The notes under the pieces were generated by a model, which did not search any database, was not told where the DNA came from, and saw nothing but the letters and a program-made list of their open reading frames with translations. 40,298 nt of DNA from a virus. The position numbers were made by a program, and so were the translations under genes. Below, in pieces: positions 16,017 through 38,361 of the stretch. The stretch covers positions 1-40,298 of the IMG/VR virus record IMGVR_UViG_3300009537_000058; one strand, written 5' to 3'. Within the stretch, counting starts at the first letter, position 1. Every line of letters starts with the position of its first letter.

Positions 16017-16781
16017 ATGACGATAGGCAATCAAGTTGGAGGCATGGTTAATTTACGGTACATTGTCCGTAATTACCAGAACGAAATTGGCGATTACAGC
16101 AATACGCAATTCAAGCGATTGATGCAAATTGCCATTGATGGCTTAACTCACTTAAGAATCTATCATCAGGCCGCAATTGAAGTTGTTTATTTAACGATAA
16201 ACGAAGCAGGTATTGCAGTGCTTCCACCAACGTATATTGATTACATAAAAGTCGGCATGACGGTTTCCGGTAGCAATGATTTATACATACTGGGAATAAA
16301 TCCAAGGATGGCATTAAACAGGGCGCAGGAGTGCGGAGAAGATATAAGGGTGATGAGTACTGCAGGAGTTGGCATTTCGGATGGTTATTTTTTCACACCA
16401 CACGAGAGAAACGGAAGTTATGTCCCAACACTATATGGTATTGGAGGTGGGTTTGCTCGTGCATACTTTAAGATTGACAAAGAGGCGGGGCAAATACAAT
16501 TTGACGGATCAATACCAAATGGTGAGATTGTCCTTGAATTTAAGAGCACAGGAGTTGGGCCGGGCACAGTTGTAAACCGTGTTTGTATTAAGCCAATAAA
16601 AGACTGGATGGGGTACCACAGCATCAAGCGAAATCTGACAATACCTATGAATCAAAAGCAATTGATGAAGCAGGATTTAGAAGAGTCGATTAAAGAACTG
16701 AGGGCTTTCAACCAGAAGTTTACCATGAGAGAGTACATGGATACGTTATACCGAAGTAAAAAACAAACACCTAAGCCATAA
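16017..16781 (+). CDS. Tail ring / tubular-A-like protein
   Basis: 254 aa. N-terminal helices ('LRYIVRNYQNEIGDYSNTQ', 'FKRLMQIAIDGLTHLRIYH') precede a strand-rich core with 'AVLPPTYIDYIKVGMTV', which matches the signature of podophage ring / tail-tubular A proteins (LP-x-DY-I-x-xx-KVG). After it come 'GIGGGFARAYFKIDKEAGQ' and 'QFDGSIPNGEIVLEFKSTG'. A basic helical C-terminus ('ESIKELRAFNQKFTMREYMD') follows. It directly precedes and overlaps the 1262-aa tail protein, as the ring protein adjoining the muzzle does in crAss-like phages. It would form the ring between portal and tail tip. Confidence 0.7.
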   Translation: MTIGNQVGGMVNLRYIVRNYQNEIGDYSNTQFKRLMQIAIDGLTHLRIYHQAAIEVVYLTINEAGIAVLPPTYIDYIKVGMTVSGSNDLYILGINPRMALNRAQECGEDIRVMSTAGVGISDGYFFTPHERNGSYVPTLYGIGGGFARAYFKIDKEAGQIQFDGSIPNGEIVLEFKSTGVGPGTVVNRVCIKPIKDWMGYHSIKRNLTIPMNQKQLMKQDLEESIKELRAFNQKFTMREYMDTLYRSKKQTPKP

Positions 16782-19700
16782 TGAAGCAGACACTACCATT
16801 TACAGGGAGGCTTGACCAAGATACTGAGCCAAGATATTTAAAGCCTGGTAAGTATAGGAGTGCGTGGAACGCAAGGGTAGGAACATCAAATGAGGGTAAT
16901 GAAGGAGCATTAGAGAGTGTAGTTAGTACAATAAAAAGGACGGCAACACTTCCTGCAGGAACAAATACCTGTATCGGGCAATGTCAGGACATAAAGAACA
17001 GTTCGATTATTTACTGCATTCATAATAGCAATGGAAACCATAGAATAATCCGATTTAACACAATAACAAAGGGCACATCACATATACTTCCGATTGTATG
17101 GGACGTAACAGTATTAAACTGGACGGTAGCGGGTCGGTTGTGGAATATGAGGATAGTTGAGACCGGCATTGATAACGGACAACTAATGTTTTTCACAGAC
17201 GGTAATAATCAGCCGAGAAGAATAAATCTGAATATCGCAACGCAGCGAACATTATTCTATACCCTAACAGAAGATGATATTAGTGTAATTAAAAAAACAC
17301 CAAACTTAGCCCCTTTAATAGAATTTGATACTATTGCAGGAAAAAGTAATGCAATAAAAAACGCAAATTTCCAATTTCGTTATCGCTGGGTTTATGAAAA
17401 TGGGGAAATATCATCATCAGGGCCAATATCTGAAATATCACTTGCTCCGCAAGACGGAACAGAATATAACACAATTAAGGTAACATTTAATTCCGGCAAA
17501 AGGGGCGTTTTAAAATCTGAAATAATGGTCAGGGTCGGGAATGGTTCTACTGAGACTGGCACTATAAATCCTGAGTGGTATATTTTTAATACATGGATAA
17601 AAGGCTCTTTACAACACGACACTAATTATACTATTAATTTCAATAATGATGAAGTATTTAAATCCGTAAGCAGAATTGATACTAATAAGATTTTTGATAC
17701 CGTACCCCAATTAGCAGGGGCGCAAGAAATAATAGAAAGCAATCAGATAATTTACGCAGATATAACAGAGGGGTATGACAATATTAAAACAGATGTTAGT
17801 TATCAAATTTTATATGAAAAAACGGGACTAAATAAATTTACTTCCTTTGTGGGTGAGGATGCAAAATATACTTTTTATGTTTTTCCTAATTTTTTACCGA
17901 GCATTGGAGACATTTTATATGTAGAGATAGAGGATGAGAGTTATGGACATTTAATAACTCAATCATTTGTCATAGATTATATACCAACAAGTGCATTAAT
18001 AGCGAATAGTCTGGCTGAAATGCTTAGGGTAAACAATAAAATAGCGACCGTAGGAGTAGCAACAAATCCTGCACCGATATTTACAAATATAGTTAGACCC
18101 GCAATATGCTATTGGAAACCAAAAAACTATGCTAAAACAATTCAAATAGTTGATTGGGAAAAAATAGGAGACCAAAACTTAAATACATCCGGTGATACCA
18201 AAATAACCTTCCAAAAAACAATAGTTAATGGAGTATTAAGGGTAAACGATAGTGATTTTATCTTACAAGGGGATAGAGCATTAACTGTTAATTATCAATT
18301 TGATATATATATTAGAATAGATAATCCACATCCGCCAGCGACTAATGCGGTTTATCTATATAATGTAGATGATAGTAAATACATTATATTTAAACAAATT
18401 GCGTATGGTACGGGTATAAGTACATTATTAGTGACATTTAATTTATCGGGAGAATCATTAATAGGGAAGAAAATAGCAATAGCGATAGGGTTGGGTGTAA
18501 GTGGGCAGAAGATACTATCGGGAGCGACATTAAAAATAAATACCATTAATACAGGAGATTATATTGCAACAGGGCTTAAATCAGGGGCAACCCATAAGTG
18601 GGGAATAGTGTATTTTGATGAATATATGCGAAATGGTGGGGTACAAAAAACCAATGAAGTATATGTTCCATTTCCTACGGAAAGAGCATGGTGGCACAGT
18701 CCATATAACTTTAGGGGAGAGGGAACAGGGTATATTCCTTATGTAGAATGGAGCATAAAACACAGACCCCCAATCTGGGCAAAATATTGGACATGGGCGT
18801 ATGATGGTTCAAGTGTTCAGAATTATGCTCAATTTATAGCACTAATAGACGATCTTTCAAAAGATATTGGACCGGGTACAATTAAAATAAGTCCGATAAA
18901 TCTCTCTTATTATAAATATATTTACAGGGCATTTTCAGTTGGAGACAAAATCAGGTTATTGTTTAAGAAAGATTCTCCCGTAGGTGAGGAAAATAGAATT
19001 ATATCAACAATAACAACATCATTTGATAGTCTTATAGATGGATTAATTACCGCCATATCAGAGGATTATATAGAGTGTGAAACAAATGATGGGGCAATAA
19101 ACATAAGTACTATTAATGGGGCGACAGTAGAAATATATTCATTAACAAAGGCAGAATTATATTTTGAAACCACAAGTTATTTCGCATTAGATGATGTGGG
19201 TAATGTTAAAACAATTTATGAAGTAGGAAATTGGGGGCAACCGACAAGATACCATAGAGGAGCCAGTCAGAATCAGGATGCAAACAATCCAATTACTATA
19301 CCGGCCAAAGGATTTTTAAAGGGCAATGCATATTTTCGATATATTCCACAAGCGATAGATGCAAAAGCAAAAGTTCCTTCAATGCCAATTATCACTGAAT
19401 CAAATTCTATATCCTACAATTACGAATCAAACTATTGGGATAAGGGAAGAGTACAAGTAGAAACGCCAAATCAAAAACAGCAGAGAATACCATATCTGTT
19501 AAGGTGGGGAGGGAAGCTATTTCAGACAAGCCAGATAAACAACATGAGTTCCTTTGATAGTGGAAACTACAAAGTATTGAGTGCAAAGTTTGGCGCAGTA
19601 ACGGCCATGCGAGAGAGGGGCTATACGCTAAAGATAATCCAAGAGTCAAATATTTCATCAGCCTTTATCGGAAGGAGAGAGATACAAAATGCAGACGGCA

Positions 19701-20569
19701 GCACACAGTTGGTAGTGACGGACAGCTTAATCGGCACAGTAAACCCAAGCGAATATGGATATGGTACTAAGTATCCCGGCAGTGTAGTTCTGTATAACAA
19801 CAAGATATACTTTGTTGACACGATAAAAGGCGTTGTCATAAGGGATGCAGAAAACACTCCATTCCCTATATCGGATTATGGCATGAGCAAGTACTGGAGA
19901 GCAGAGTGCGATTTGATAGAATCAGCAAGTGCAGTTATAGTTGCGGGATTTAACAAACAGGAGAATAGTTTGTATATCACATGGTTTAACGGAGGCAAGA
20001 CAATTAGTTTCTATGAACCAGAGAGGCAGAATGAAGAAGCTGGATGGGTAGCGAATCACAACTTTGCAAAAGCCGGAAGTTCTGTAGAGATGATGGCCTG
20101 GATAGGTAAGACATTTACTACATTTATTGGAGGAGAGTTATATGAGCACAATGTAGGCACTAATTACTTGCAGATGTTTGGGGAGCAGAAAACTTTATCG
20201 GTTACTTCTGTATTCAACCCCGAGCCAAATAAGGTGAAAGTATTTTTAGCGCACAGTATTCATGCCAATATCTATGCGCTTAAAACGATATTAACTTGTC
20301 CTGTAACGGAGATGTTCCCAGTTGGGATGAGGACAATCCTCGTGAACAACAATTACAAGTTGAAAGAAGGTGTTTACTATGCAGCATTAAAGAAAGACGG
20401 ATATACAAAAGGCCCATATTCTGATACAGATGCGAATTTCCGGAAGATGCTAATAAGTGGAAGAGAGATGAGGGGACACGTTATTTTTGCGGAAATAACT
20501 TATGCAGACAGTAAATTGTTTGTATTGTTTACAAATGAAATGGAATTTATAAACTCTGAGGAATCATGA
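16781..20569 (+). CDS. Large tail 'muzzle / stabilization'-like protein
   Basis: 1262 aa. The N-terminus 'LPFTGRLDQDTEPRYLKPGK' with 'YRSAWNARVGTSNEGNEGAL' is close to the opening of the crAss-like 'stabilization' (muzzle) proteins ('... lDtd ... l.pg.YrdA.N'). The body has propeller-like repeats ('GQLMFFTDGNNQPRRINLN'), long beta-rich domains and a C-terminal part with 'PGSVVLYNNKIYFVDTIKGV' and 'TWFNGGKTISFYEPERQ'. It would close the tail and contact receptor-binding proteins, and probably opens the channel for DNA ejection. By hand count, lines at 17641, 17881 and 18361 have 25-33% GC, against 42-47% at 16861 and 19981, so the middle (about residues 165-870) may be an exchanged module. It overlaps neighbours by ATG/TGA junctions. 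Confidence 0.7.
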   Translation: MKQTLPFTGRLDQDTEPRYLKPGKYRSAWNARVGTSNEGNEGALESVVSTIKRTATLPAGTNTCIGQCQDIKNSSIIYCIHNSNGNHRIIRFNTITKGTSHILPIVWDVTVLNWTVAGRLWNMRIVETGIDNGQLMFFTDGNNQPRRINLNIATQRTLFYTLTEDDISVIKKTPNLAPLIEFDTIAGKSNAIKNANFQFRYRWVYENGEISSSGPISEISLAPQDGTEYNTIKVTFNSGKRGVLKSEIMVRVGNGSTETGTINPEWYIFNTWIKGSLQHDTNYTINFNNDEVFKSVSRIDTNKIFDTVPQLAGAQEIIESNQIIYADITEGYDNIKTDVSYQILYEKTGLNKFTSFVGEDAKYTFYVFPNFLPSIGDILYVEIEDESYGHLITQSFVIDYIPTSALIANSLAEMLRVNNKIATVGVATNPAPIFTNIVRPAICYWKPKNYAKTIQIVDWEKIGDQNLNTSGDTKITFQKTIVNGVLRVNDSDFILQGDRALTVNYQFDIYIRIDNPHPPATNAVYLYNVDDSKYIIFKQIAYGTGISTLLVTFNLSGESLIGKKIAIAIGLGVSGQKILSGATLKINTINTGDYIATGLKSGATHKWGIVYFDEYMRNGGVQKTNEVYVPFPTERAWWHSPYNFRGEGTGYIPYVEWSIKHRPPIWAKYWTWAYDGSSVQNYAQFIALIDDLSKDIGPGTIKISPINLSYYKYIYRAFSVGDKIRLLFKKDSPVGEENRIISTITTSFDSLIDGLITAISEDYIECETNDGAINISTINGATVEIYSLTKAELYFETTSYFALDDVGNVKTIYEVGNWGQPTRYHRGASQNQDANNPITIPAKGFLKGNAYFRYIPQAIDAKAKVPSMPIITESNSISYNYESNYWDKGRVQVETPNQKQQRIPYLLRWGGKLFQTSQINNMSSFDSGNYKVLSAKFGAVTAMRERGYTLKIIQESNISSAFIGRREIQNADGSTQLVVTDSLIGTVNPSEYGYGTKYPGSVVLYNNKIYFVDTIKGVVIRDAENTPFPISDYGMSKYWRAECDLIESASAVIVAGFNKQENSLYITWFNGGKTISFYEPERQNEEAGWVANHNFAKAGSSVEMMAWIGKTFTTFIGGELYEHNVGTNYLQMFGEQKTLSVTSVFNPEPNKVKVFLAHSIHANIYALKTILTCPVTEMFPVGMRTILVNNNYKLKEGVYYAALKKDGYTKGPYSDTDANFRKMLISGREMRGHVIFAEITYADSKLFVLFTNEMEFINSEES

Positions 20570-22099: not shown

Positions 22100-23056
22100 A
22101 TGGCAATACCATTAGCAATACCAATAGCACTATCAGCAGCGAGCACAATACCGAAGTGGTATCAAGCTTGGAAGCAGAATAATTTAGCAGATAAACTAGA
22201 GAAAGACCTAAGCAGACCGGATTTCGAAATACCAGAGAGTGAGAAACGAGCATTAGAGAGTGCAAAGGTGCAGTCGGGCATGACACGTTTACCGGGGCAA
22301 AGCGGAATAGAGGGGAGACTTGACCAAGAAACGGCTAATAAGCTGAACACCATCGAAAGAATGGGAATTGGTGGGCCAACGGATATAAATGCAGCATCGA
22401 CAGCATACGGGCAGCAACAGGAGGGTGAGACTAATTTAGGAATAAAGGCGTCTGATATGTATTTGAGAAATCAAGACGTATTAAGAAGTCAGTTGGATAA
22501 GATGGGTGAGTGGGAGTTTAAGGCGTGGAATTGGGATAAGAAATTACCTTACGAGAACAGAGCAGAAGCAATACAAGCATTGAGAGAAGGAAGCATAAGG
22601 AACTTGAATACGGCAGCGAGTGAAACAGCCGGGGGATTTGCAAATATCGCACTATCGGAATATATGAGAGGGAAGAATGAAGATATGTGGAAATCGATGT
22701 TTGGGGATAAAGGTGAATTAGGTAGCGTAGAAAATCCAATGCAGTTGACAAATTCTCCATATACGCCATCTCCGACATGGGGGGCTGGACAACCAGAACC
22801 GCAGGGGGTATTAGGCTCTAATTATAACCTAGCAACACCAGAGAGCAAAGCAATGAATAACCCCTTTATGCCTCAATTAAATCCAATAGATGTTCCAGGT
22901 AGTGATTCTCCGAAAAGTTTTGATTTAAGGACAAATGATGGGAATAGTTGGGACAATAAAGGATGGTCTGACTGGGATATTTTTCAAAAGAAACTAAACG
23001 TCCAGAAATTCGCGCAGAAGCCTCTTTTTGAGAAATTTACTTACGGAATGAAATAA
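22100..23056 (+). CDS. Putative internal virion / ejection protein
   Basis: 318 aa. The N-terminus is hydrophobic and Ala/Ile-rich ('AIPLAIPIALSAASTIPKWY') and could insert in membrane. It is followed by a helical region with the pattern 'RPDFEIPESEKRALESAKVQ' and 'SGMTRLPGQSGIEGRLDQ', which I associate with a conserved protein upstream of the giant polyvalent protein in Bacteroidota podophages. Further helices ('DMYLRNQDVLRSQLDKMGEW') and a disordered Pro/Asn-rich C-terminal third follow. Position between tail fibres and the 3788-aa gene fits a T7 gp14-like role: part of the conduit ejected ahead of the DNA. No enzyme motif. Confidence 0.6.
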   Translation: MAIPLAIPIALSAASTIPKWYQAWKQNNLADKLEKDLSRPDFEIPESEKRALESAKVQSGMTRLPGQSGIEGRLDQETANKLNTIERMGIGGPTDINAASTAYGQQQEGETNLGIKASDMYLRNQDVLRSQLDKMGEWEFKAWNWDKKLPYENRAEAIQALREGSIRNLNTAASETAGGFANIALSEYMRGKNEDMWKSMFGDKGELGSVENPMQLTNSPYTPSPTWGAGQPEPQGVLGSNYNLATPESKAMNNPFMPQLNPIDVPGSDSPKSFDLRTNDGNSWDNKGWSDWDIFQKKLNVQKFAQKPLFEKFTYGMK

Positions 23057-23059
23057 AAT

Positions 23060-24658
23060 ATGGATCCATTAGCAATATCATCAGGACCAAATAGGGGTGA
23101 AGCGGCAGTCTTACCGGAAGGTCACTTTTTAGACTTCTCTAAGCAAGTACTAAAACTTGGTGAGATAGATAGGGAGGAGCAGGCAAAAAATGCAGCAGCC
23201 ATAGGGAAATTAGTGAGTGACGAAGTAAAATCGAAGTGGACATCGGATCAGGTTAATTATTTCCAACCTCAGATGGAGAAAATCAAAACAGAGGCGATAG
23301 ACTTATTCAAAAAAACTAATGGCAAAATAAACCCGGTACAAGCATTTGAGATGCAGCAGAAGTGGAATAAGCTAAAAGGGGAGGCAGAGGCAGGTAATGC
23401 TATGTGGAGTGAGTATGCTAAAATGGCCCAAGAGTTACGAACTAAGCCAGAACAGTACGAGAATGAGCAGTCAAGAGCCAACTTAGATAAGGTACTAAAT
23501 CCAACTAAATATCCCGAGATAAAAAAAGAGATAGACGAGCAATACGGAGGTAACATAGGAGTATGGAGAACAGAGAATATTGATAAGTACGGACTAGAAA
23601 AATCACTTACGCAAGACCAATACATAGCAGAAACGAGTAAGGACGAGAAGCCAAGTAAGGGCGAACTGAGGGATAATAAGGGTAAAATAATTTACGGCAA
23701 ACATCCGGCAACAGGGCAGACTTATTACACATCATTAACCACATACACGCCAAATCAACTTGATAGACTTGCCCAAAATGCCCTTAATGATAATTCATGG
23801 AAAGGCATGAAATCAAAGAAATTGGCAATAGAGGATTTGAACAGTCAAGTTGATATTGATAGCGAGGGCAAAATATCCTTTAAAGAAGGTATCAATCCAG
23901 TATTAAAAGGTTTTATATTAGAGGAGAAATTAACAGGCGTATCAGATGCAGAAAAGATAAAAAAGCTAACTAAAGCATACTACAAGGCGCAATATCTGAA
24001 TAAGGTTCAAACAAAAGAAGATTTAAGGGAACTTGCATTTCCTCCAAAGGGAGATGGTAGTGGTAGTGGTAGTGGAAAACCGGAAGATTATAATTGGTCA
24101 ATTGGCACTAAGACACAAGAAGTAACGCCACAAGAGAGTGAAGCATCGGCAAAAGCAAGAGCAGATAAGTATTATAAAGGAAATATTGAAGAGGCAAAGG
24201 CCGCAAGCAAGGAATACGCAAAGCAGCATCAAGCCAAACTCCAGGCGATGTATGGCAAAGAGAATTCTTACATAGCATTTCAAGCTAAAGGGGGAAAAGA
24301 CAACCCAATAATAACGTATACACAACCGGGCACAATTGGAGAATCTGCACAATACAGAACAAATGGATTTGTAAAAAAAGGTGGAGAGTGGAAATTCGTA
24401 GGAACGCAAGCAATGGATAAAGAGAAGATGGATGCGTTAATGGCGGGATTTTACGCGTTAAGTGAGGAAGAGAAAAAGAAACCAGAGAACAAGCCAAAAT
24501 TCAATTTTGAGCCCCAAGAGTTTGAGATTACACTTGAAGTAGCGGCAGCGCATGGCTTTCATGGGCAGAATGCAGTACAGAACATGAAGAATTGGTTGGA
24601 AAGTAAAATTAAGCCTGGGCAGGTCAGTAATACATTGGTAAAAGGTAACGTAAGATAA
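23060..24658 (+). CDS. Putative internal virion / ejection protein (532 aa)
   Basis: Long helical, charged protein: residues 30-140 have coiled-coil character ('QVNYFQPQMEKIKTEAIDLF', 'EAEAGNAMWSEYAKMAQELR'). At nt ~24054-24075 a short (GGTAGT)n tract encodes a Gly-Ser linker ('GDGSGSGSGKPED'). After the linker come 'SAKARADKYYKGNIEEAKAA' and a probable globular end ('FEITLEVAAAHGFHGQNAVQ'). It starts 3 nt after the 318-aa gene and stops 2 nt before the polyvalent gene, so the three are one expression unit. A cargo or ejection role is inferred from this clustering and from architecture. No catalytic signature is visible. Confidence 0.58.
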   Translation: MDPLAISSGPNRGEAAVLPEGHFLDFSKQVLKLGEIDREEQAKNAAAIGKLVSDEVKSKWTSDQVNYFQPQMEKIKTEAIDLFKKTNGKINPVQAFEMQQKWNKLKGEAEAGNAMWSEYAKMAQELRTKPEQYENEQSRANLDKVLNPTKYPEIKKEIDEQYGGNIGVWRTENIDKYGLEKSLTQDQYIAETSKDEKPSKGELRDNKGKIIYGKHPATGQTYYTSLTTYTPNQLDRLAQNALNDNSWKGMKSKKLAIEDLNSQVDIDSEGKISFKEGINPVLKGFILEEKLTGVSDAEKIKKLTKAYYKAQYLNKVQTKEDLRELAFPPKGDGSGSGSGKPEDYNWSIGTKTQEVTPQESEASAKARADKYYKGNIEEAKAASKEYAKQHQAKLQAMYGKENSYIAFQAKGGKDNPIITYTQPGTIGESAQYRTNGFVKKGGEWKFVGTQAMDKEKMDALMAGFYALSEEEKKKPENKPKFNFEPQEFEITLEVAAAHGFHGQNAVQNMKNWLESKIKPGQVSNTLVKGNVR

Positions 24659-24660
24659 TT

Positions 24661-27600
24661 ATGCCGGACAAAATAGAAAAAATACTACAAGATTATATAG
24701 CCACAGCAAATAGCGGTAAATATAATAGTTGGGATGAGGTTAATTCTAAGTTTCCTGAGTTAAAAGGGTACGATGCCAGCGTTCTCCAAGACTATGTAAC
24801 AACAGCCAATAGCGGCAAATACAAAACGATAGAGGATGTAAATGCTAAATTCCCTGAATTATTTAAAAAAAAAAGTTCAAATGGAGCTTCCGTTGTTTCG
24901 AAGCCAGAATTACAATCACCTTCGAAAGAGCCTAAGACAGTACAACCGGAGGGGACAGAAGAGTGGAATACGATTGCTCCAGAGAGTAGAGAAAATTTAA
25001 GACCTGACGGCACAAAAAAAGGTAAGGGGTTTTTGGGCGAATTACCAATGCAAGATGGTAGTGGTAAAAAAGCCACTGAATTAAGTATAGGTATTGAAAT
25101 TGATGGTAAAGAAACATTGATACCAACAATAGTTCCAACTTTAACAGACGAGGAAAGGCAATTTCTTTTAAAAGGTGGGAATGTCTTGGATAAAAAAAAC
25201 CCAATGGCAAATGCAATAGTTGACAAGGCTGTTGCCCACGCAAAAGAAAGAATATCAACCGGCAAAACCCCATTTGCAGAAGAAGAAAACCCATTTAAAA
25301 GCAATGAGAAGGTACCTGTTGATAGCCCATTTTCACCAGATTACAAACCTAAGCCAGTAGCTATACCTATTGATGATGCTTTTCAATATACCAACAAAGA
25401 GTTGGCTAACAAGTTGGAGGGCATGAATGAGAGGATGAGGAAATCAAAACTTACTTCAAATGATAAGCAGTATGGCACATTAACATCAATGTTAGACCCA
25501 GAGCCACTCTCACCACTTTTTACTCCTTCCGGAATAGATAAAGAGGGTCTTAAAGATAGATATAAAGCTAATGGTATTTATGACTTAAAAGATAAGTTCA
25601 GTCCCAAAGCTATACAAGGTAGTGAGGAGGATGTATTCAACTACTTAGAAAACAGGCCAAATCTTGCTCGACAATTAAAAATAAAAGACAAATTATCAGA
25701 GCAAGAGCAATTCAGTATAATTTACAAGTCACAAGAAAATAAAATACAATCCTTAGAACAGGATATGGAAATCTTACGCAAGAGAAGCGGAGAAGTAATT
25801 GGGACGTATGAAAAGACAGCCAAAGAACTTAACAAGGCGGCAGAGAATGTGGGTGTAGTAAGGCGAGATTTTACAAATGCACAGGCTAAGTTGCTTTCCG
25901 AAAAAGGATATCATCAGGCTTCGGCAACGATTAAACAAATATCGTTAGATATTGAAAAACTAAAAGATTATGCTAAATCAACGGAAAGTGAAATACAAAA
26001 TATAAAGAGTAATGCGGATCGCATAAATATTTACTTACAACCATACAACCGTTTAATAGTACAAGACAGATTTACTGGAGATGAGGCGCAGTATAGGGAG
26101 TATCTTAGTTTGCATGAGCAGCTAAAAGGGTTGAATCAGAAATATAATTCTATTGTAGAAAATCCTGAATATAAAAAATATGCGGCATTAGCAGACTCAT
26201 ATAATGTTGCAGTAGAAACCGCAAATAGTATATTAGCAAAATACCCCAACATAAACGAGAAATACAACAGTTATAAGCAGTCATTCGATAAGTACAATAC
26301 AATATTAGCACAGGCCGAACAACTAAAAGCAAATCCGGACGTACAACAGTATTATAAAACAGGCAGCGAATTACAAGGCATAGCCAAAAAACTATCCGAT
26401 TCAGAATTGGCGTTGCCGTCATTGAAAGAGATTAAATTTAACAATGATTTGTGGCAAAAAAGATTTACCTCTATGCCAGTACTATCGCCAGCACTATCTG
26501 GTATAGTTTCGTTTGGCAATGCGGTCACGGATTTAGGGGCTAATTTAACCAGTGGGTTTGTTAATGCTGTGGGAGGACTAACAGAAGCAACGATAGAGGG
26601 CAGGGATAAATATACTCCAAGACAATATGATAAATTGGCATTATTCTTTGAGGATGTATTTGCTGCACCATTTATAAGGCCAGAAAAATCATTAGTTGAC
26701 CAACAGGGGAACTTCACGCCTTCGTTTTCAGGGGCAGCTAACGATGTAGCTTCGCAGATTCCTTTATTTGTATTCTTAGCAATGACATCAGGAACCGGAG
26801 CCGTATTGGGGCAAGAAGCAAAAGGAATTGCAGGTAAACTTATAAGTAAACAGGCACTTAATTTAACGGTACAGGGTGCGCTTGCTTCGTATTCCGGTTA
26901 TTATAAACTAGCACAAGAGAAAGGGTTAGAAGGGACAGAGGCGCATACTTACGCAGCACAAATGTCATTTTTCGAAGGCGCATCGGAATTAATAAGCCCT
27001 AACAGAAAAATACTTTTCAAAGAGTTTAGCCCTAAATTACTGGATGACTATGTTCAAGTATTAGCAAAAAAACAAGGGGTTGGCGCAGCAATAAAAGAGG
27101 GATTAAAAACATATAGTGAAGATTTTTTAAAGGAGAACTTTGAGGAATGGGCAAATATGGGCGCACAGATGATGGTTGATTTTAGTCATGGGCTAAAAGC
27201 AGAACCACCAACTGTTGGGCAGATACTTCAAACAGCAATATCAATGGCACCGCTAATAGGCGGAAGTGGTTATAGTGGATATAAGAATGCAAGGCAAGAG
27301 CAGCAAATCGCAGTATATAAGATGGCAAATGACCCTGAAAATGCCAAATTACAATTAGATGCTGCATTTGAGAGAGGAGATATAACACAAGAGGATCACG
27401 ATGCTATAATAAATGACATGGCAAAGTTGGTTGTAAAGCTAGGGGGTGTACCATCAGAACTGTCAGATATTAAAAAAATAATGATTTCAAACAATCTTAT
27501 GGCAATTGAAGATGCACAAACAACAATTGCGGGAGAAAACATTGATCCTTCTATTAAAGCGAGTTATGAGGCGCAAATAAAGGAGTGGCAGAATAACATA

Positions 27601-30600
27601 AAAAAGATAATGGTTGCTCCAATAGGGGAATTAGAGAAGGAGTTTGCAACAAAATATGGATATACAGAACCAGAAATACCGAAAGTTGAACCGATTGAAC
27701 CCAAAATAGAACCAGTTGAAGCACCCAAAATTGAACCCAAAATAGAACCGGTAGAGCCCAAAGTAGAGCCATTAGCAGAAGAAGTAATTCCGATTGGCAC
27801 AAAACTATCAGATGCGATAGAAACGCCTCCCGAGATGAGTATTAAAGGTGAAAAGGGTGTAATAAAAGTTGATGAAGGAGGAAAGGTAGAATTTGTAACA
27901 GAAACAACTTCACACGAGTTGGGGAACATTGAAGAAATCAAGAACAAGAGTTTAAGCGAGTTGGGGGTAGAAGAAATAAAACCACTTGACATTGAAGTTG
28001 CCGAAGATTACAGCATCACGATTGATGGGAATAAATACGTAAATAATTTCTCTGATCCGATGGCAGCTGTCAACCATGATAAATCGGGTAATGTTATTTC
28101 GATAAATCTAGAAACGGAGGATGGAAAAAAAAGGACAATACGAGGGGATAGAGCGGAGCAGGTAGCATATAATTACACACTATTAAATTTTGAAAACAAT
28201 GCAACAGAAGAGCAAATCCGAGCAGCCACAGAAGAGGCAGGAACAATTGAGCCAGTTGAAGGAAAAGTTGAAAAAGTTGAGCCCAAAACAGAAGAGGGAG
28301 TTGCTCCAGAAACACCTAAGCCAGTCGAGCCAAAGTCAGAAGTAAAAGCGGGAGAGCCGCAAGTAAAGCCACCCGCCACAGAAGGTAGTGGTGTAGGGGG
28401 AGGGGTAGAGCAATCCACCGCCCCAGAAGCAAAGGATAAGGTAGTAGGTAGTGAAACACCTGATGCGCTGAAAAATGTAGAGGATGAAAAAGAAAGAACT
28501 GTAACTCCAGTCAGCAAAGGCAATAAAAACACACTAGAGATTGAAGGATATGGATCAATTCTAACAAGTGGATTTATAAACAGACTTGTTGAAGCTGGCC
28601 GATTACCAAATGAGGCACTAAAAACTAGGCACATACAATTAACAAAAGAGTATGCTACTAAACTTTTGAATGAAAACTCCGACTTGTTTACGCAAGAACC
28701 GCCAAAACCTAAACCCACACTAAGGCAAAATACAGCAAAGAAATACAATAAGATACCCGTTGAAAGTGTAAGAACAGAGATAATGAAGTACTTCGCTTCC
28801 GGGTATTTCCTAGATGCCGAAGAAACACAGAGGAGAACAGGACTTCCGGCAAAAGATTTGATTGGCTTCATAAAAAAGGGAGCATATAGCTACCATGATC
28901 TTGCAGAATCTATTGGAGGAGAGTTGGGTCGGGATGTTAATGGGAAAGAGTTCGATGACCTTGTTACTGACATTATATCCATGGGCAAGGGGCAAATCTA
29001 TAATGAACTTAATGCTCTTATTGATAGGCAAAACGGGGTTGATGACAGAATATCTCCAGAAGATGAATTAGCGGATGAAGAAAAAAATGTTATCCAAGGA
29101 GATTTAGATGGAGAATTATCGCTAGAAGAGCAGGAGTCATTGGATAATGTAATAGCAAAATATACAGAGAACGGAATTACAAACTGGGCACAGATTGAAA
29201 AAGATATTGATGGATTTGTCCCCGAAATAATTGAATTAACAACTAAAGCACATGACAGACTTAAACAAATCACCGAAGAAAACCTCCGAGAAGGTAAAAA
29301 GCCAAAAGAGGGAAAAGCTAATGAGAATGATATTGCTAAACCAAAAGTCAAAGAACCAACCAAAGCCGAAAAGCCAACAATAGCAACAGAGGCTATAGAT
29401 CTAGAAAATATCGCTTTCGAGCCAAAAACACCATATCAGACAGGCTTGGAACTGGGTGGAGAAGGTAAGAGTGATGCTCGCAAGGAGTATGAGGCAAAGA
29501 TTAGCGAGGCTAAAAACAATATTCGGGAGGCGCAGCAGAGGTTAGATACGGAAAGGGAGAAGTTAGTAAGGAGGGGTGCAAGTAAAGAGAAAATTGCAGA
29601 GGCACTTGCTATATTTGAGAAGGGAGTTGTAGAGTACACTAAAATATATCAAGATTTAATTAGTGCAAAAAAAGCGAAGAATGTTGCTGACTTTGAAAAA
29701 AAGCAAAATACATTATTTGAGCCCGGTAAGGAGTATAATTCAGATGCCCAACAGAATCCAGGCAAGTTCGACAAGACAGAAGGGTATGCAGCGAGTAGTG
29801 AGACATTTATTGGCACAGAGATAATAAATCTTGGAGTTAATTTCATGGGGAATGAAATGACCGGACCCGCTAAAATAAAATCGCCAGCCGATATTGCATA
29901 CATCTTTAGGCATCTTGAAAATGAAAAGAGCGAAAATGCGTTTGCCGTATTCGAAAAGGGAGGGAAGTACCAAGTTCTATACATAGGCACAGGAGGGACA
30001 TCTGCTACAGTTGTGGATGCGAAAAAAATAGTAGCAGCAGCGAAAGATTATGGGGCAGAAAGAGTAACATTCATACATAACCACCCAAGCGGAAATTTAA
30101 GTGCATCGCCACAAGATAAAATCTTGTTTAGAAATGTAAAGGAATTATTAGAAGAGCTTGATATAGCATTGATGGATGGTATTATAATTGACATTGATAA
30201 AGGGCTATTTGCAACATTTGACGATCAAATATCGTGGGGTGCGATAGACAGGCCGACATCCGTTGAAAAAGAAAGAGCGATAGAAATACATCATTTCGGG
30301 AAAAACAAATACTACCAACCAGAATCAGAGAGAACACAAGTTGTTTCTTCACATAGTGTCGGAGTGTATCTAAGCAAGCAGAAGAGGGGCACTACGCCAA
30401 AGATACAGGCGATAATTCTGAATAGAGCGAATATTGTAACAAAGTCCTTGATGTACGATGAGACAATCGACATGGAGCAACTTAAAAAGGAGTTGATTTA
30501 TGAGGTTGCCAAGTATGGAGAATCTTTAATATTAGCATCAAACAATAAGTTAACAACAGAGTTTATTGCTGATTTAAAGAGAGTGTTAAATAAGCAGAAT

Positions 30601-33600
30601 ACTAATATTCTCGATGTAGTTGATATAAAACAAGACGAGAGTATATTACAATCAATGAAGAGTTGGGCAGATGAGGGCAAGTTAGGGGAGCCGGAGGTGC
30701 CATACGGATCGGAGGGGATAAGATTAAGATCAATACTTAACAACATTGGATTAAGTGAGAGGGGATGGAGCAGTAGTGACAATTCTCAGTTGGGGGAGAG
30801 GATAAATAAGGAGCTGAAAAGAGTAGGATTAGACTACAAATATAAAGCAGCATGGTACAACTATACTAAGTCATGGCATATTGTTAATAAGGTAACGGGA
30901 AATCACGTAAATCCTGTATCGGTTAAAGAGCCTCCAGTTGAATATGGTAAACCAATTCCTCCCGAAGCACTTGCAAAAGCATCAGAAGTTTTAAAAAAAC
31001 TATTTGACAAAGGCACTAAAAATTTTGATGATGTAATCAATTATTTATCGACACACTTAGGCGAGGAAAAACTTACAACTCCTACTAAATACGGACCGAC
31101 ATTTATAGATTTCTTAAAAACGGCATATATTACTGCATGGGCGCAATCATCAGATGCAGACGAATTAACATCACCACAAGAAGTAAAAAATTATGAAAGA
31201 CGAGAAAAAACAACTACAGGACAGCGACTTGGAAATGGAAATGGGATTGGATCCAGACCAGCCGGCACTCCAGCAACTGGAGGAGTTAGCAATGACAAAC
31301 GACCAAGCCTTCGAGTTATTGACCAAGAAAATTTACCCAAACCGGGAGATCATGTCAATATTGGACAATACGATATAGACGAAAATCAAAGGTTAGCGGT
31401 AAATTTAGCGGTTGAGGCGTTTACGAGCGATAAGAAAGGTTTTATGCTTGCCGATGGCACAGGAGTAGGAAAAACAAGAATAGAGCTTGTAGCGGCAGAG
31501 GAATGGCGTAAAAAAAGCAATAAACCAGTACTGATAGTTACAAAAAACAAACAAATCATAGCCGGTAGTTTTACGGCAGATGCGAAATCGTTGGGTATTA
31601 ACTTGGACAACTTTGTAATGGCGACATATACAGGTTTAGATAAAATACCTAAACAAGAGTATGGTTTGGTGATCTTTGACGAAGCTCATGAAATAAAAAA
31701 TGCAACCAGCCAAAAGAGTATTGAGGCGGGGAATATCAAATCGGATCACATAATGTTTGCGACAGCGACCCCGATGGATAGGCCAACTGGATCGGCATAC
31801 TTTATTTCTAAAATGAGTAATAGACCACTCGAAGAGGTAGAGGCGGAGATGGGATTTTACACGAAAGTAGAGGTAGATAAATATGGTAATGAGAAAAAAG
31901 GTGTATATCCTTTAAAAGGTTTCAACTGGGGAAAAATATTCGATAACATCATTAAAATAAGAAAAGAGGCAATAAAGAATGGGCAGATGATAAGGAGGGA
32001 GTATCCTTTCTTTGGTACCATAACCTCGGATAATGTATTATTGGGGGAATCTTTCAATATAGGTCACCAAAGGATAGATGACTACTGGCAGGAAAGAATT
32101 GATGCGGCAAGGAGTCCACAAGCTAAAAAGAATCTTGCAGGACAGAGAATTGGCGAATTATCAAGACATACGGAATCGGGGAAAATTGATATAGCCTATA
32201 AGCTATTAAAGAAAGATTTAGCAGAAGGGCGAAGTGTAATACTGATAGCAGAAGGGGTAAATGATAGCGAAATAAAAGGACTTGATGGGCAAGTAGTAAA
32301 AGGTCTATTGAGTGAGGTGGCAAAAAGGTTAACAGCAGAGGGGATAGATTTCGCAAAGATATTTGGACCTGGAGATAAAGGAGGTGAAGTAACTAGGTTT
32401 CAAAATGGAGGAGTGCGGGTAGCTTTAGCAACACCACAGAGCGGGGGAACGGGAGTAAATCTTGATGACATAGTTGGTGACAAGCCAAGAACAATGCTTG
32501 TAACGACAGCAAATTATGCAGGAGACCAAGTGGACCAGATATTCGGAAGAGTAAGCAGACGAAATACAGCTAGTCCGGCAAAGATTCAGATGTTATTTTC
32601 TCCTGAAAGTTTAAGTGATGAGAGGAGAAGGCAAATATTTGAAACTAAAGCAAAAGTATTAAGAAGGATACAGGCCGGAGAGGATCCCGACTTGGCAATG
32701 TTATACGAACAGACAGAAGGAGGAATAGGCGAGGATGGGCAACTAGCGGCAGATGCAGCTTCAAACAGCAGAACAATTGATGAGATAGTTAAAGCTACAG
32801 GGGAGAAGGCTGATTCGTTTTTATTCCACGATAGGGTAAAGAAGATATTAGAAAAATTAGGGGTGCCGGTTGCGGAAAAATTATTAAGCAAGCGATATTT
32901 AGGATTATTTAAGCACAGAGAGAAAAAGATTAGAGTACAAGGGCTGTTTGACATATTTGTTGCATCACACGAGGCGGCACACTGGATAAGTAGGGAGTTT
33001 GGAATTGGGTTGCGAATAAGAGCAGATAAAAACGGCACAAAGGACTTACGCAAAATGCTTACGGACATATACGTTGAGTTTTACCCAAGAGCAAGGAGAT
33101 CTCATAGCCTTGAAAAAAGGGTAGAAGAGGGTATTGCGGTTTTGCTTGAAAATTACTTGTATGATCCAACGGGTATTCATGGGAAGTATGGGTTACTTGT
33201 AGATTCTTTTTTAAAGCCAACAGGGGAATATTATCATCCTAAGTTCAGCGAATTATTGGGAGAAATGAATAAGTTAATCAAAGACTATTCAAATCTAACA
33301 CCAGAGCAGAAAATAGGAACAAGAATTGTTTCCGGAGATGTAGTTAAAGATCAGGAGGGCTTAGGGATTGCAAATAAACTGATAACACAAATTGTATCCT
33401 CAGCAGCACCTTTAACAATTATTGATGAAATGGCAGGAGCCAAATATAGCGATCAATCAGAGGTTGCATATATTAGATGGTTAGATAGGAGTAAAATTGT
33501 AACCAACTGGGTACAAGGAAAGACTCATGCTATGTCGGTGGATAAGCGAGGCAATTGGTTCCCTATAAAAGCGAGTGTGGAGCAGTATCTAAGGACATTC

Positions 33601-36027
33601 AAAACCGATGAAGAGCGAACTAATTTTGAAGAATTTTTAGTGGCAAGAAGAGCCGTGGGAGATGTGAACTATCTTCATGAATTAGAGAATGAACTAGCGG
33701 AAGTAATCAATAAAATAATCGAAAGGGAACAAGACCTTGATGAAGTGGATAGAAAAGGTCCTACAGGGGCAGAAAAAGCACTTATCAAACAACTAGCAGA
33801 GCAGGTAGAGAGGCAGAGGAGCATAATAGCAAATGACAAATTTGACTTACAGACGGTGACAGATGTAGTTAACAAGTTTGAGGGGAAATTTACGAAAGCA
33901 ACAGAAATTTATGACAGAATCAATAACGCACTTGTAGATTTCGCTTATACTAAAAATCTATTATCAGCACAGCAAGCGCAGGATTATAAGTCAAATAAAA
34001 CCTATGCAAGATTTATGCGCATGGTAATGGATGATTTAATGACCGACCTCCCGCAAGGAACAAATAGTCAAGCTAAGGTAAGGGTATTTATGGGGCGTAA
34101 AGGAAGTGATTTGGCGGTAGTAAGCCCAATTTACGGACAAATTCTCGCGATAAATGAAGTAATAAGTAAAGGACTGCAGAACGATATATGGTTAAGAGTA
34201 GCAGATTTATCGTCAACCAATCCCGAGATAGCAAGACTGTTTGAGCATATGCCAACGGTAAGGGCAGTTGATGATACAGGCAAAGTAACATATCCGCAAA
34301 CAAACAAGCCAAATCATATTATGGTGTGGCGTGATGGCGTAAGAGAGTTTTATTTAGCTTCGCCAGAATTAATTGGCGTTGCCGAAAGTTTAACACCTCA
34401 GCAATTTGATACAGCAGCAACAATGCTAAGATATGCCTCCGGGGTATTCACACGATTCACTACAACTGCTTTCCCTATATTTCCTTTAATAAACGTACCA
34501 GTTGACACGGTAAGTGCATTGATGAACACTAAAACGGGATTTAGGCCGGGTTGGGATCAATTAAAAGCACTTAAACACATTGGTATATACATGGCAGATT
34601 ATATCAAACATGCGGAGACGGTTACAAAATGGTGGAATAAGATTGCCAAAACAAAAATTAAAGACCTGCAAGAGGAGGATATGAAGTTATTTGACAAATA
34701 TCTTGCACTCGGAGGGCATGGGCACACACAAGCAAGTTTTTATAACTTAATGCCAGAAGAAGCAATAGTTGTAGCAAAAGGTGGTACTAAAATTAAAAAG
34801 GCGATTGATATTTTAGAGATACCATTATCAATAATGGAATTACCCACAAATATCAGTGAGTGGATGACAAGGTTTGCAGAATTTAGTCGAGCAAAAAAAC
34901 TTGGATATAATGATGATACAGCGATGTATATGGCTTCGCAAGTTACAGTTGCATTCCAACAAACAGGGGCTATGGGAGGACCAGTAGGTAGAGCATGGGT
35001 TAAATCTATGCCATATTTCTCCGCTGCAATTCAAGTACTCGCCAAACTACTAAGATCAACTAAAGACCAACCGGAAAGAGTGGGATTGGTTGTAGCAGCA
35101 TTACTAAGCATTGGATTATCATTAATGATGTTACTGATGGAGTATGGAGATGATGACGACAAAGACTTATTGTCAAATCAAGAGCCAGCAGATCTTGCAA
35201 GGTGGCTTTATTTCCCCAATTTCCTTGTAGGAGGAAAAGGTTTTACCAGAATAAGAATACCTGAGCAGGTTGGATCGATAAATGCAATGGCAATGATGGC
35301 AATATTATCGTTTTATGATCCAAAGAGGAACATAAAATACAGCTTTAATGATTATGTGAAAGCGGGAACGGTATCTATACCACAGCAATTTAACGTAACA
35401 CAGCCTGCACAAATGTTTACTTCATGGTTGCCACAGTTAGTAAGACCTGGTGCAGAAACGCTATATGGAATTAAATCATATCCAGAGATGATGCCAATAG
35501 TGCCGATGGGATTGTCACATAAAGAATCACAATATCAGTACACAGAATACACCTCGAAGGTTGCAAAATCGGCAGGACAGATGATGGGTGTTTCGCCAAT
35601 GAAGTTAGACTACTTTATTAAAGCCCAATTTGGACGAACAATACCATATTTTATACCGGGGTTTAAGAACAGAGAAGTACACAACCCTCTTGAAATCGAC
35701 TATGAAGATTATAAACTGAGAGGAAGAGTATTCAATAACTTTCACGAGATGTACAGAAACGTAAGTGCGCAGAATTCGAGTTTAAAAGAGAAGAAAGCCG
35801 AAGGCATGAAGTTGGATGAGTATATAAAGATAAAAGCAAATTTCAAGGCGTTAGATGCGCTGAAAGATATTCTAACGGATGTAAGAAGGAAAGATTCTAT
35901 CCCATTGGATGCTGCTAAGTTGATATTTAAAGTGGTTAATGATGTAACGAACAGTCAAAACCCATACGAGTTGACTCCGGATATAGTAAATTTAAAAAGA
36001 CAAGTTGATATATTCTTAGGTAAATAA
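24661..36027 (+). CDS. Giant polyvalent protein: JAB/RadC-like, SF2 helicase, zincin-like, LPD38-like
   Basis: 3788 aa in one frame. Visible order: two 27-residue N-terminal repeats (8-34, 41-67); a small conserved domain (~115-215, 'LIPTIVPTLTDEERQFLLKG'); coiled coils (350-620); a hydrophobic region (~695-780); a Glu/Pro/Lys repeat linker (~1005-1040); a JAB/RadC-like domain with 'HNHPSGNLSASPQD' (H1806, H1808); a Strawberry-notch-like SF2 helicase with Walker A 'ADGTGVGKT' (2264-2272), DEAH (2340-2343) and motif VI 'QIFGRVSRR' (from 2626); 'SHEAAHW' (H2770-E2771-H2774) with E2822/E2823 downstream, like a zinc peptidase; then a long C-terminal region with a TM stretch (~3474-3496) and LPD38-like sequence. 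Such proteins are thought to be packaged, injected with the genome, and to act against host defences or on host DNA. A 10-A run (24865-24874) lies near the N-terminus. Confidence 0.85.
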   Translation: MPDKIEKILQDYIATANSGKYNSWDEVNSKFPELKGYDASVLQDYVTTANSGKYKTIEDVNAKFPELFKKKSSNGASVVSKPELQSPSKEPKTVQPEGTEEWNTIAPESRENLRPDGTKKGKGFLGELPMQDGSGKKATELSIGIEIDGKETLIPTIVPTLTDEERQFLLKGGNVLDKKNPMANAIVDKAVAHAKERISTGKTPFAEEENPFKSNEKVPVDSPFSPDYKPKPVAIPIDDAFQYTNKELANKLEGMNERMRKSKLTSNDKQYGTLTSMLDPEPLSPLFTPSGIDKEGLKDRYKANGIYDLKDKFSPKAIQGSEEDVFNYLENRPNLARQLKIKDKLSEQEQFSIIYKSQENKIQSLEQDMEILRKRSGEVIGTYEKTAKELNKAAENVGVVRRDFTNAQAKLLSEKGYHQASATIKQISLDIEKLKDYAKSTESEIQNIKSNADRINIYLQPYNRLIVQDRFTGDEAQYREYLSLHEQLKGLNQKYNSIVENPEYKKYAALADSYNVAVETANSILAKYPNINEKYNSYKQSFDKYNTILAQAEQLKANPDVQQYYKTGSELQGIAKKLSDSELALPSLKEIKFNNDLWQKRFTSMPVLSPALSGIVSFGNAVTDLGANLTSGFVNAVGGLTEATIEGRDKYTPRQYDKLALFFEDVFAAPFIRPEKSLVDQQGNFTPSFSGAANDVASQIPLFVFLAMTSGTGAVLGQEAKGIAGKLISKQALNLTVQGALASYSGYYKLAQEKGLEGTEAHTYAAQMSFFEGASELISPNRKILFKEFSPKLLDDYVQVLAKKQGVGAAIKEGLKTYSEDFLKENFEEWANMGAQMMVDFSHGLKAEPPTVGQILQTAISMAPLIGGSGYSGYKNARQEQQIAVYKMANDPENAKLQLDAAFERGDITQEDHDAIINDMAKLVVKLGGVPSELSDIKKIMISNNLMAIEDAQTTIAGENIDPSIKASYEAQIKEWQNNIKKIMVAPIGELEKEFATKYGYTEPEIPKVEPIEPKIEPVEAPKIEPKIEPVEPKVEPLAEEVIPIGTKLSDAIETPPEMSIKGEKGVIKVDEGGKVEFVTETTSHELGNIEEIKNKSLSELGVEEIKPLDIEVAEDYSITIDGNKYVNNFSDPMAAVNHDKSGNVISINLETEDGKKRTIRGDRAEQVAYNYTLLNFENNATEEQIRAATEEAGTIEPVEGKVEKVEPKTEEGVAPETPKPVEPKSEVKAGEPQVKPPATEGSGVGGGVEQSTAPEAKDKVVGSETPDALKNVEDEKERTVTPVSKGNKNTLEIEGYGSILTSGFINRLVEAGRLPNEALKTRHIQLTKEYATKLLNENSDLFTQEPPKPKPTLRQNTAKKYNKIPVESVRTEIMKYFASGYFLDAEETQRRTGLPAKDLIGFIKKGAYSYHDLAESIGGELGRDVNGKEFDDLVTDIISMGKGQIYNELNALIDRQNGVDDRISPEDELADEEKNVIQGDLDGELSLEEQESLDNVIAKYTENGITNWAQIEKDIDGFVPEIIELTTKAHDRLKQITEENLREGKKPKEGKANENDIAKPKVKEPTKAEKPTIATEAIDLENIAFEPKTPYQTGLELGGEGKSDARKEYEAKISEAKNNIREAQQRLDTEREKLVRRGASKEKIAEALAIFEKGVVEYTKIYQDLISAKKAKNVADFEKKQNTLFEPGKEYNSDAQQNPGKFDKTEGYAASSETFIGTEIINLGVNFMGNEMTGPAKIKSPADIAYIFRHLENEKSENAFAVFEKGGKYQVLYIGTGGTSATVVDAKKIVAAAKDYGAERVTFIHNHPSGNLSASPQDKILFRNVKELLEELDIALMDGIIIDIDKGLFATFDDQISWGAIDRPTSVEKERAIEIHHFGKNKYYQPESERTQVVSSHSVGVYLSKQKRGTTPKIQAIILNRANIVTKSLMYDETIDMEQLKKELIYEVAKYGESLILASNNKLTTEFIADLKRVLNKQNTNILDVVDIKQDESILQSMKSWADEGKLGEPEVPYGSEGIRLRSILNNIGLSERGWSSSDNSQLGERINKELKRVGLDYKYKAAWYNYTKSWHIVNKVTGNHVNPVSVKEPPVEYGKPIPPEALAKASEVLKKLFDKGTKNFDDVINYLSTHLGEEKLTTPTKYGPTFIDFLKTAYITAWAQSSDADELTSPQEVKNYERREKTTTGQRLGNGNGIGSRPAGTPATGGVSNDKRPSLRVIDQENLPKPGDHVNIGQYDIDENQRLAVNLAVEAFTSDKKGFMLADGTGVGKTRIELVAAEEWRKKSNKPVLIVTKNKQIIAGSFTADAKSLGINLDNFVMATYTGLDKIPKQEYGLVIFDEAHEIKNATSQKSIEAGNIKSDHIMFATATPMDRPTGSAYFISKMSNRPLEEVEAEMGFYTKVEVDKYGNEKKGVYPLKGFNWGKIFDNIIKIRKEAIKNGQMIRREYPFFGTITSDNVLLGESFNIGHQRIDDYWQERIDAARSPQAKKNLAGQRIGELSRHTESGKIDIAYKLLKKDLAEGRSVILIAEGVNDSEIKGLDGQVVKGLLSEVAKRLTAEGIDFAKIFGPGDKGGEVTRFQNGGVRVALATPQSGGTGVNLDDIVGDKPRTMLVTTANYAGDQVDQIFGRVSRRNTASPAKIQMLFSPESLSDERRRQIFETKAKVLRRIQAGEDPDLAMLYEQTEGGIGEDGQLAADAASNSRTIDEIVKATGEKADSFLFHDRVKKILEKLGVPVAEKLLSKRYLGLFKHREKKIRVQGLFDIFVASHEAAHWISREFGIGLRIRADKNGTKDLRKMLTDIYVEFYPRARRSHSLEKRVEEGIAVLLENYLYDPTGIHGKYGLLVDSFLKPTGEYYHPKFSELLGEMNKLIKDYSNLTPEQKIGTRIVSGDVVKDQEGLGIANKLITQIVSSAAPLTIIDEMAGAKYSDQSEVAYIRWLDRSKIVTNWVQGKTHAMSVDKRGNWFPIKASVEQYLRTFKTDEERTNFEEFLVARRAVGDVNYLHELENELAEVINKIIEREQDLDEVDRKGPTGAEKALIKQLAEQVERQRSIIANDKFDLQTVTDVVNKFEGKFTKATEIYDRINNALVDFAYTKNLLSAQQAQDYKSNKTYARFMRMVMDDLMTDLPQGTNSQAKVRVFMGRKGSDLAVVSPIYGQILAINEVISKGLQNDIWLRVADLSSTNPEIARLFEHMPTVRAVDDTGKVTYPQTNKPNHIMVWRDGVREFYLASPELIGVAESLTPQQFDTAATMLRYASGVFTRFTTTAFPIFPLINVPVDTVSALMNTKTGFRPGWDQLKALKHIGIYMADYIKHAETVTKWWNKIAKTKIKDLQEEDMKLFDKYLALGGHGHTQASFYNLMPEEAIVVAKGGTKIKKAIDILEIPLSIMELPTNISEWMTRFAEFSRAKKLGYNDDTAMYMASQVTVAFQQTGAMGGPVGRAWVKSMPYFSAAIQVLAKLLRSTKDQPERVGLVVAALLSIGLSLMMLLMEYGDDDDKDLLSNQEPADLARWLYFPNFLVGGKGFTRIRIPEQVGSINAMAMMAILSFYDPKRNIKYSFNDYVKAGTVSIPQQFNVTQPAQMFTSWLPQLVRPGAETLYGIKSYPEMMPIVPMGLSHKESQYQYTEYTSKVAKSAGQMMGVSPMKLDYFIKAQFGRTIPYFIPGFKNREVHNPLEIDYEDYKLRGRVFNNFHEMYRNVSAQNSSLKEKKAEGMKLDEYIKIKANFKALDALKDILTDVRRKDSIPLDAAKLIFKVVNDVTNSQNPYELTPDIVNLKRQVDIFLGK
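24682..24861 (+). repeat. Two tandem 27-residue repeats at the polyvalent N-terminus
   Basis: Residues 8-34 ('ILQDYIATANSGKYNSWDEV...') and 41-67 ('VLQDYVTTANSGKYKTIEDV...') share LQDY, TANSGKY, DEV/EDV and KFPEL, with a 6-residue spacer. The DNA copies have diverged at third positions, so the duplication is old. Likely a small binding or packaging module. Confidence 0.85.
27670..27780 (+). repeat. Glu-Pro-Lys repeat linker in the polyvalent gene
   Basis: Imperfect repeats encoding 'EPKIEPVE', 'APKIEPK' and 'EPVEPKVEPL' form an extended, charged linker between the hydrophobic N-terminal third and the later enzymatic domains. A second Pro/Glu-rich linker lies at about 28255-28440. Confidence 0.8.
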
Positions 36028-36376: not shown

Positions 36377-36396
36377 TAAATCGCTTAACGAATTTT

Positions 36397-36430
36397 AAAA
36401 GCCTCAATGATAGGGGCTTTTATTATTTTT
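36397..36430 (+). terminator. Rho-independent terminator after the 93-aa gene
   Basis: AAAAGCCTC (36397-36405) pairs with GGGGCTTTT (36413-36421) through 9 bp including one T-G wobble, with a 7-nt loop, and is followed by ATTATTTTTT. A-tract plus U-tract symmetry means it could also act on the other strand. It separates the virion genes from the glycosyltransferase cassette. Confidence 0.85.
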
Positions 36431-38360: not shown

Positions 38361-38361
38361 T

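What the first reader, a model, noticed from the sequence alone, without database searches (positions are those of the whole stretch)
24661..36027. 3788-aa polyvalent protein combining protease-like, helicase and zincin-like modules
One open frame of 11.4 kb holds a JAB/RadC-like HNHPSG motif, a full SF2 helicase of Strawberry-notch type, a HEAAH motif with a downstream Glu, hydrophobic segments and an LPD38-like end. Polyvalent proteins are known, but this combination and order (JAB, helicase, zincin, membrane-linked end) could form a single injected counter-defence machine. It is the best candidate in the window for an undescribed system.
Basis: partly seen in the sequence, partly recalled or inferred. 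Interest (0 to 1): 0.75.

Follow-up and report, generated by a model that had tools for sequence, protein, structure and literature searches.

The report
Phage giant injected multi-enzyme protein (polyvalent)
A phage of Bacteroidota-type bacteria carries one very long protein, most likely packed in the virus particle and shot into the host with the DNA, that joins a RadC-type enzyme, a DNA motor and a protein-cutting domain; it is a new arrangement of the known 'polyvalent' phage proteins, not a new kind of system.

Summary
Window 24661-36027 is one 3788-aa ORF. Pfam finds RadC (E 7e-16, JAMM residues intact) and LPD38 (3e-14). A complete Strawberry-notch-type SF2 helicase (aa 2192-2705) folds confidently (pLDDT 80). 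HEAAH plus E2823 lie in a zincin block collinear with other polyvalent proteins. A second JAB-like domain lacking the active site may follow RadC (weak evidence).

TerL, portal, MCP and a crAss-type muzzle place the phage among flavobacterial podoviruses (Callevirus, Elemovirus, Panino). There the last structural gene is a long protein, and phi40:1 gp101 in that place is a virion protein by MS/MS. The C-terminal core matches internal-virion-position proteins of podoviruses. So a packaged, ejected polyvalent protein is likely; counter-defence is inference.

It is not an undescribed system. Helicase-zincin-LPD38 core in the same order occurs in four other viral contigs (one with an adenine-methylase motif where RadC sits here). 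RadC plus this helicase occurs in seven other phage giants; one, L291, has all four parts in another order. New here: RadC in phage-type LPD38 proteins (reported only from conjugative elements in 2017) and the RadC-first order. None of 102 other LPD38-core ORFs has RadC.

The parts
24661..36027 (+). Whole polyvalent protein gene, 3788 aa
24685..24864 (+). aa 9-68: two copies of a ~30-aa repeat (LQDYxxTANSGKYxxxxEVNxKFPEL)
   Evidence: sequence; similar stretches in other giants
24994..25305 (+). aa 112-215: small domain 39-48% identical to short phage proteins beside endolysin/terminase/connector genes
26665..27306 (+). aa 669-882: N-terminal Gly/hydrophobic module, weakly related to the N-terminal module of the syntenic virion giants (phi38:1, elemo, Gundel, L202)
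   Evidence: hhalign E 5e-4; BLAST aa 689-785 vs L202 giant E 1e-5
29878..30198 (+). aa 1740-1846: RadC-like JAB domain, E1758 H1806 H1808 S1816 D1819 intact
30274..30705 (+). aa 1872-2015: domain that follows RadC in all 8 phage giants; possibly a second, inactive JAB-like domain
   Evidence: profile-profile with RadC P 0.006 only
31234..32775 (+). aa 2192-2705: Strawberry-notch-type SF2 (SWI2/SNF2 class) helicase; Walker A 31456-31476, DEAH 31678-31689, motif VI 32545-32565
32734..33606 (+). aa 2692-2982: zincin metallopeptidase-like domain; HEAAH 32968-32982, Glu E2823 at 33127-33129
33778..35679 (+). aa 3040-3673: C-terminal core shared with internal-virion-position proteins of podoviruses
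35080..35136 (+). aa 3474-3492: transmembrane-like segment inside the core; BA3 and HTVC034P have hydrophobic segments at the aligned place
35224..35640 (+). aa 3522-3660: LPD38 (PF18857)
16781..20569 (+). Tail muzzle protein (crAss muzzle C-terminal domain PF25729), anchor of the synteny
22100..23056 (+). 318-aa protein in the place of phi40:1 gp099 (virion, MS/MS); placed by order, no sequence match
23060..24658 (+). 532-aa protein in the place of phi40:1 gp100 (virion, MS/MS); placed by order, no sequence match
36396..36422 (+). Terminator-like hairpin (10-pair stem, T-rich tail) after the block (and after a short ORF 36095-36376)
   Evidence: number of such sites not above chance

Best explanation
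It is a virion-packaged polyvalent protein of a Bacteroidota-type podovirus, the largest and last gene of its capsid-tail block. Proposed working: during assembly the protein enters the capsid (shown for the syntenic protein of phi40:1, inferred here). At infection it is extruded, partly unfolded, through the tail with or ahead of the DNA; the N-terminal module and the C-terminal LPD38 core, with its membrane-type helix, form or line the path into the cell (inferred from relatives). In the cytoplasm the zincin cuts the polypeptide (inferred, the general hypothesis of Iyer et al.). This frees a RadC plus SNO-helicase unit that works on DNA: the motor translocates on incoming phage DNA or host DNA, and RadC, a metal-dependent JAB-fold enzyme, processes nucleic acid or nucleotide substrates. 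RadC takes the place that an adenine-methylase motif holds beside the same motor in L304, so protection or early processing of the incoming genome is the most likely purpose.
For: Domains. Synteny TerL-portal-MCP-muzzle-small-medium-giant in flavobacterial phages and viral contigs. phi40:1 gp097-gp101 annotated from experimental MS/MS proteomics. Same helicase (43-45% identity) in giants of muzzle-bearing relatives L209-L211/L296. C-terminal core in the T7-gp16-like place of Pelagibacter phage HTVC034P and in Thalassomonas phage BA3. Full-length fold-level matches of the zincin-core block to 'Large polyvalent protein' models. phiCrAss001 precedent for cargo ejection through such a tail: PMC10172136. 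Methylase motif in place of RadC in L304.
Against: No virion data for this phage. Sequence homology to the MS/MS-detected giant covers only a weak N-terminal stretch (E 5e-4); the rest is positional. The zincin/core model has low confidence (pLDDT 58) and no PDB match, so catalysis is unproven. RadC function is unsettled.
Confidence: 0.66

Rival explanations
1. An ejection/channel protein with passenger enzymes that mainly start replication or repair of the phage genome after entry (RadC and the helicase as DNA-processing enzymes), not counter-defence.
For: RadC is thought to act on nucleic acids (PMC5512222); the SNO helicase is a SWI2/SNF2-class motor; the motor also occurs without methylase or RadC motif in muzzle-bearing relatives (L209-L211, L296).
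Against: The same motor is paired with an adenine-methylase motif in L304, the classic counter-restriction pair.
Confidence: 0.35
2. A specific counter-defence effector: RadC/JAB removes a protein or ubiquitin-like conjugate, or the RadC-helicase unit blocks a restriction or nuclease complex.
For: JAB-fold metal site intact; the distribution of helicase-methylase pairs in polyvalent proteins suggests anti-restriction (PMC5512222).
Against: Iyer et al. state that RadC-clade JAB domains are unlikely to have the groove for a ubiquitin tail. No defence target identified; the PADLOC hits are only generic helicase similarity.
Confidence: 0.3
3. An intracellular, non-packaged enzyme or a decaying mosaic without working catalytic sites.
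For: No direct virion data; zincin model of low confidence.
Against: All motifs intact, ORF unbroken over 11 kb with even GC3; position and C-terminal core are those of ejected proteins.
Confidence: 0.08

Closest known systems
Phage-type polyvalent proteins (Iyer et al. 2017, PMC5512222)
   Same: Giant single polypeptide with unrelated enzymes, zincin, SWI2/SNF2- or Strawberry-notch-type motor, LPD38; placed with virion genes
   Different: RadC is listed there as found only in conjugative-element polyvalent proteins; here it is fused to a phage-only LPD38 protein
DarB-like giant of Bcep22-like phage JC1 (gp69, PMC9144972) and BA3_0002 / L096-type proteins
   Same: Motor and/or methylase cargo with a C-terminal LPD38; zincin upstream of the core in BA3 and L096
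   Different: They carry a methylase (in JC1 and L096 next to an SNF2-type motor; BA3 shows only the methylase motif) and no RadC; JC1 also has a lytic transglycosylase-like domain
Viral contigs L304, L320, L293, L297 (IMG/VR)
   Same: SNO helicase, zincin, LPD38-type core in the same order
   Different: L304 has an NPPF methylase motif upstream; no RadC motif in any of the four (L320 and L293 are cut at the 5' end)
Viral contig L291 (IMG/VR, ORF of at least 5938 aa)
   Same: Helicase, HExxH, RadC plus following domain, LPD38 (85.6 bits)
   Different: Order helicase-HExxH-RadC-LPD38; the HExxH there did not match the zincin profile
phi40:1/phi38:1 gp101 and phiCrAss001 cargo proteins
   Same: Same genomic place after the muzzle; gp101 found in virions by MS/MS; cargo ejection model
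   Different: gp101 is 1691 aa, with none of these enzyme motifs and only weak similarity at the N-terminal module

Membership tests
Phage-type polyvalent protein | Several biochemically unrelated domains in one polypeptide | tested here: met
   RadC, SF2 helicase, zincin-like, LPD38
Phage-type polyvalent protein | LPD38 or another phage-only LPD domain | tested here: met
   PF18857 E 3e-14
Phage-type polyvalent protein | Encoded with virion genes | tested here: met
   Last large gene of the TerL-portal-MCP-muzzle block
Phage-type polyvalent protein | Packaged and injected with the DNA | not testable with these tools
   Only by synteny: phi40:1 gp101 MS/MS
RadC/JAB | E...HxHPxG...SxxD metal site in a RadC-like domain | tested here: met
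Strawberry-notch-type SF2 helicase | AAA_34 N-half and Helicase_C_4 C-half | tested here: inconclusive
   AAA_34 35.3 bits > 27 on the isolated half but 26.8 < 27 in the full protein; C-half not recognised directly, but homologues L214, L216, L217 give Helicase_C_4 at 23.7-29.3 bits, below 30.5
Strawberry-notch-type SF2 helicase | Two RecA lobes with motifs I-VI | tested here: met
Zincin metallopeptidase | HEXXH helix and downstream Glu helix in a zincin fold | tested here: inconclusive
   Motifs aligned and in helices, but model pLDDT 58 and no PDB fold match
Crassvirales | crAss muzzle, tail-barrel ring proteins, MCP and TerL of the order | tested here: inconclusive
   Muzzle C-terminal domain PF25729 30.8 bits; nearest relatives Callevirus, Elemovirus, Panino at 22-27% identity; order membership not tested by a tree

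The most novel reading that the evidence does not exclude
Phages use a recurring two-part RadC unit (active JAB followed by an inactive JAB-like domain) coupled to a Strawberry-notch motor as an injected device that edits DNA, or removes a conjugated defence mark from it, in the first minutes of infection, in place of the usual methylase.
Probability: 0.17. Interest if true: 0.7.

Novelty: new variant of a known kind. Interest (0 to 1): 0.42.

Why it matters
RadC is a widespread bacterial and mobile-element gene with no settled function. Finding it at least eight times in phage giant proteins beside the same DNA motor, with a conserved partner domain, removes the published rule that RadC polyvalent proteins belong only to conjugative elements and offers a testable setting for what RadC does in early infection. 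The protein also shows a swappable cargo slot: methylase or RadC upstream of the same helicase-zincin-core chassis.

Tried and rejected
Single-protein scans of viral contigs with the giant and with TerL found nothing; alignment queries were needed. tblastn of the middle third (aa 1001-2080, RadC included) against the phage collection gave no match. PHROGs gave only a weak helicase hit and a RadC-type hit. The one genome-contig scan with the core found one distant MAG locus, so prophage distribution was not tested. The MT835526 helicase match was not followed up: the one ORF translated there did not look like a helicase. The second domain after RadC as a proven JAB duplicate: left as inference (P 0.006, no PDB match). 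Fold search of the zincin-core model against PDB found nothing. One phrogs search and one pfam search failed on bad coordinates. PMC13288928 (phi38:1 virion methylation) does not name gp101.

Full report
Observation. The frame 24661-36027 is real and unbroken: 3788 codons, even third-position GC. Whole-protein Pfam gives RadC (aa 1740-1846, E 6.9e-16) and LPD38 (aa 3522-3660, E 3.4e-14) well above their cut-offs, and SF2 motor families around 2239-2374. Cutting the helicase half out raises ResIII to 45 bits and AAA_34, the Strawberry-notch N-half, to 35 bits (cut-off 27).

Helicase. Profile scans of 2.9 million viral contigs found close relatives (the best 42-48% identity over about 460-510 aa); 49 of 57 lie in ORFs of 1500 aa or more. 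All SF2 motifs are conserved. The AlphaFold2 model (pLDDT 80, pTM 0.73) matches SWI2/SNF2 motors such as Chd1, Mot1 and CSB. Relatives L214, L216 and L217 match both Strawberry-notch halves, the C-half just below its cut-off.

RadC. JAMM residues E1758, H1806, H1808, S1816 and D1819 are invariant in the window protein and seven other giants; a profile of them finds the solved RadC 2qlc at E 9e-13. RadC passes Pfam's cut-off in L213, L288, L290, L291, L306 and L314 (L310 is just below). In all eight a further ~130-aa domain follows. It is collinear with RadC but lacks the active-site histidines; the profile comparison is only suggestive (P 0.006).

Zincin and core. HEAAH alone would be weak, since HExxH occurs in 4% of shuffles. 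But aa 2740-3660 align in one stretch with L096, a methylase-SNF2-zincin-LPD38 giant (E 4e-14), and the EG motif of the second helix is aligned. The core (3040-3673) is shared with Thalassomonas phage BA3 and Pelagibacter phage HTVC034P gp44; the latter lies between an internal virion protein B-like gene and the tail fibre. The model of this block is low-confidence (58) and has no PDB match, yet it matches BFVD entries named large polyvalent protein over its full length (best E 6e-22).

Is it packaged? TerL, portal, MCP, ring protein and muzzle relate the phage to Callevirus, Elemovirus, Bacelvirus, Gundelvirus, Panino and uncultured relatives. In the relatives examined with an intact block a large protein comes last, after the muzzle and the small and medium genes; Gundel's block is arranged differently. 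In phi40:1 the muzzle, the three genes after it and the large one (gp097-gp101) are annotated from experimental MS/MS proteomics. Four related contigs (L209, L210, L211, L296) with a phi38-type muzzle gene nearby carry this very helicase in their giant at 43-45% identity. For L210, L211 and L296 the giant's N-terminal part matches those of the phi38, phi46:3, elemo or Gundel giants. The window's own N-terminal module matches weakly (E 5e-4 and 1e-5). Packaging of the window protein is therefore a strong inference, not a result.

How common is the architecture? Helicase-zincin-core in this order also occurs in L293, L297, L304 and L320; L304 has a methylase motif upstream, where RadC sits here. 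L291 has helicase, HExxH, RadC and LPD38 in another order. Among 102 other ORFs with the core, 26 have an upstream HExxH, 16 a methylase motif and none a RadC motif. The profiles were trained on some of these sequences, so self-matches there are not counted as evidence.

Literature. Iyer et al. 2017 (PMC5512222) list LPD38 as phage-only and RadC as conjugative-only among polyvalent proteins, and describe Strawberry-notch motors and zincin processing. Among papers holding RadC, polyvalent and phage, no other was on RadC polyvalent proteins as far as titles and abstracts show. The new point is thus RadC in phage-type giants, here and in seven other contigs, and the RadC-first order on an LPD38 chassis.

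Mechanism, with status. Shown: domain presence, intact motifs, helicase fold, syntenic place. Inferred: packaging, ejection, zincin self-processing, RadC-helicase action on DNA, and counter-restriction as the purpose, by analogy with the methylase-helicase pair.

Noticed in passing
window 24994-25305: aa 112-215 is a ~100-aa domain 39-48% identical to short stand-alone phage proteins beside endolysin and small-terminase or connector genes (Acibel007_49, MEP301 gp34); no Pfam family was found for it.
   Followed up: partly
window 24685-24864: Two copies of a ~30-aa repeat (LQDYxxTANSGKYxxxxEVNxKFPEL) open the protein; similar stretches occur in the giants of L204 and L218.
   Followed up: no
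L005:26439-32958 and L006:13229-18718: phi46:3 encodes the equivalent protein as two ORFs (gp120 and gp121), while Panino has the matching parts fused in one.
   Followed up: partly
L177:1306-1761: A relative by TerL (G007) carries a solo RadC gene of 151 aa with an intact HNHPSG motif, a possible source of the fused domain.
   Followed up: no
window 36518-39150: After the virion block come genes with a DUF5672 match (PF18922, 37321-37974) and unnamed neighbours that may be glycosyltransferase-like.
   Followed up: no
L204, L205, L206, L010, L012: HExxH motifs recur in the giants of other flavobacterial phages, in a zincin-like segment shared by Gundel, Manatee, L202 and L204 that did not match the one in the window by BLAST.
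   Followed up: partly
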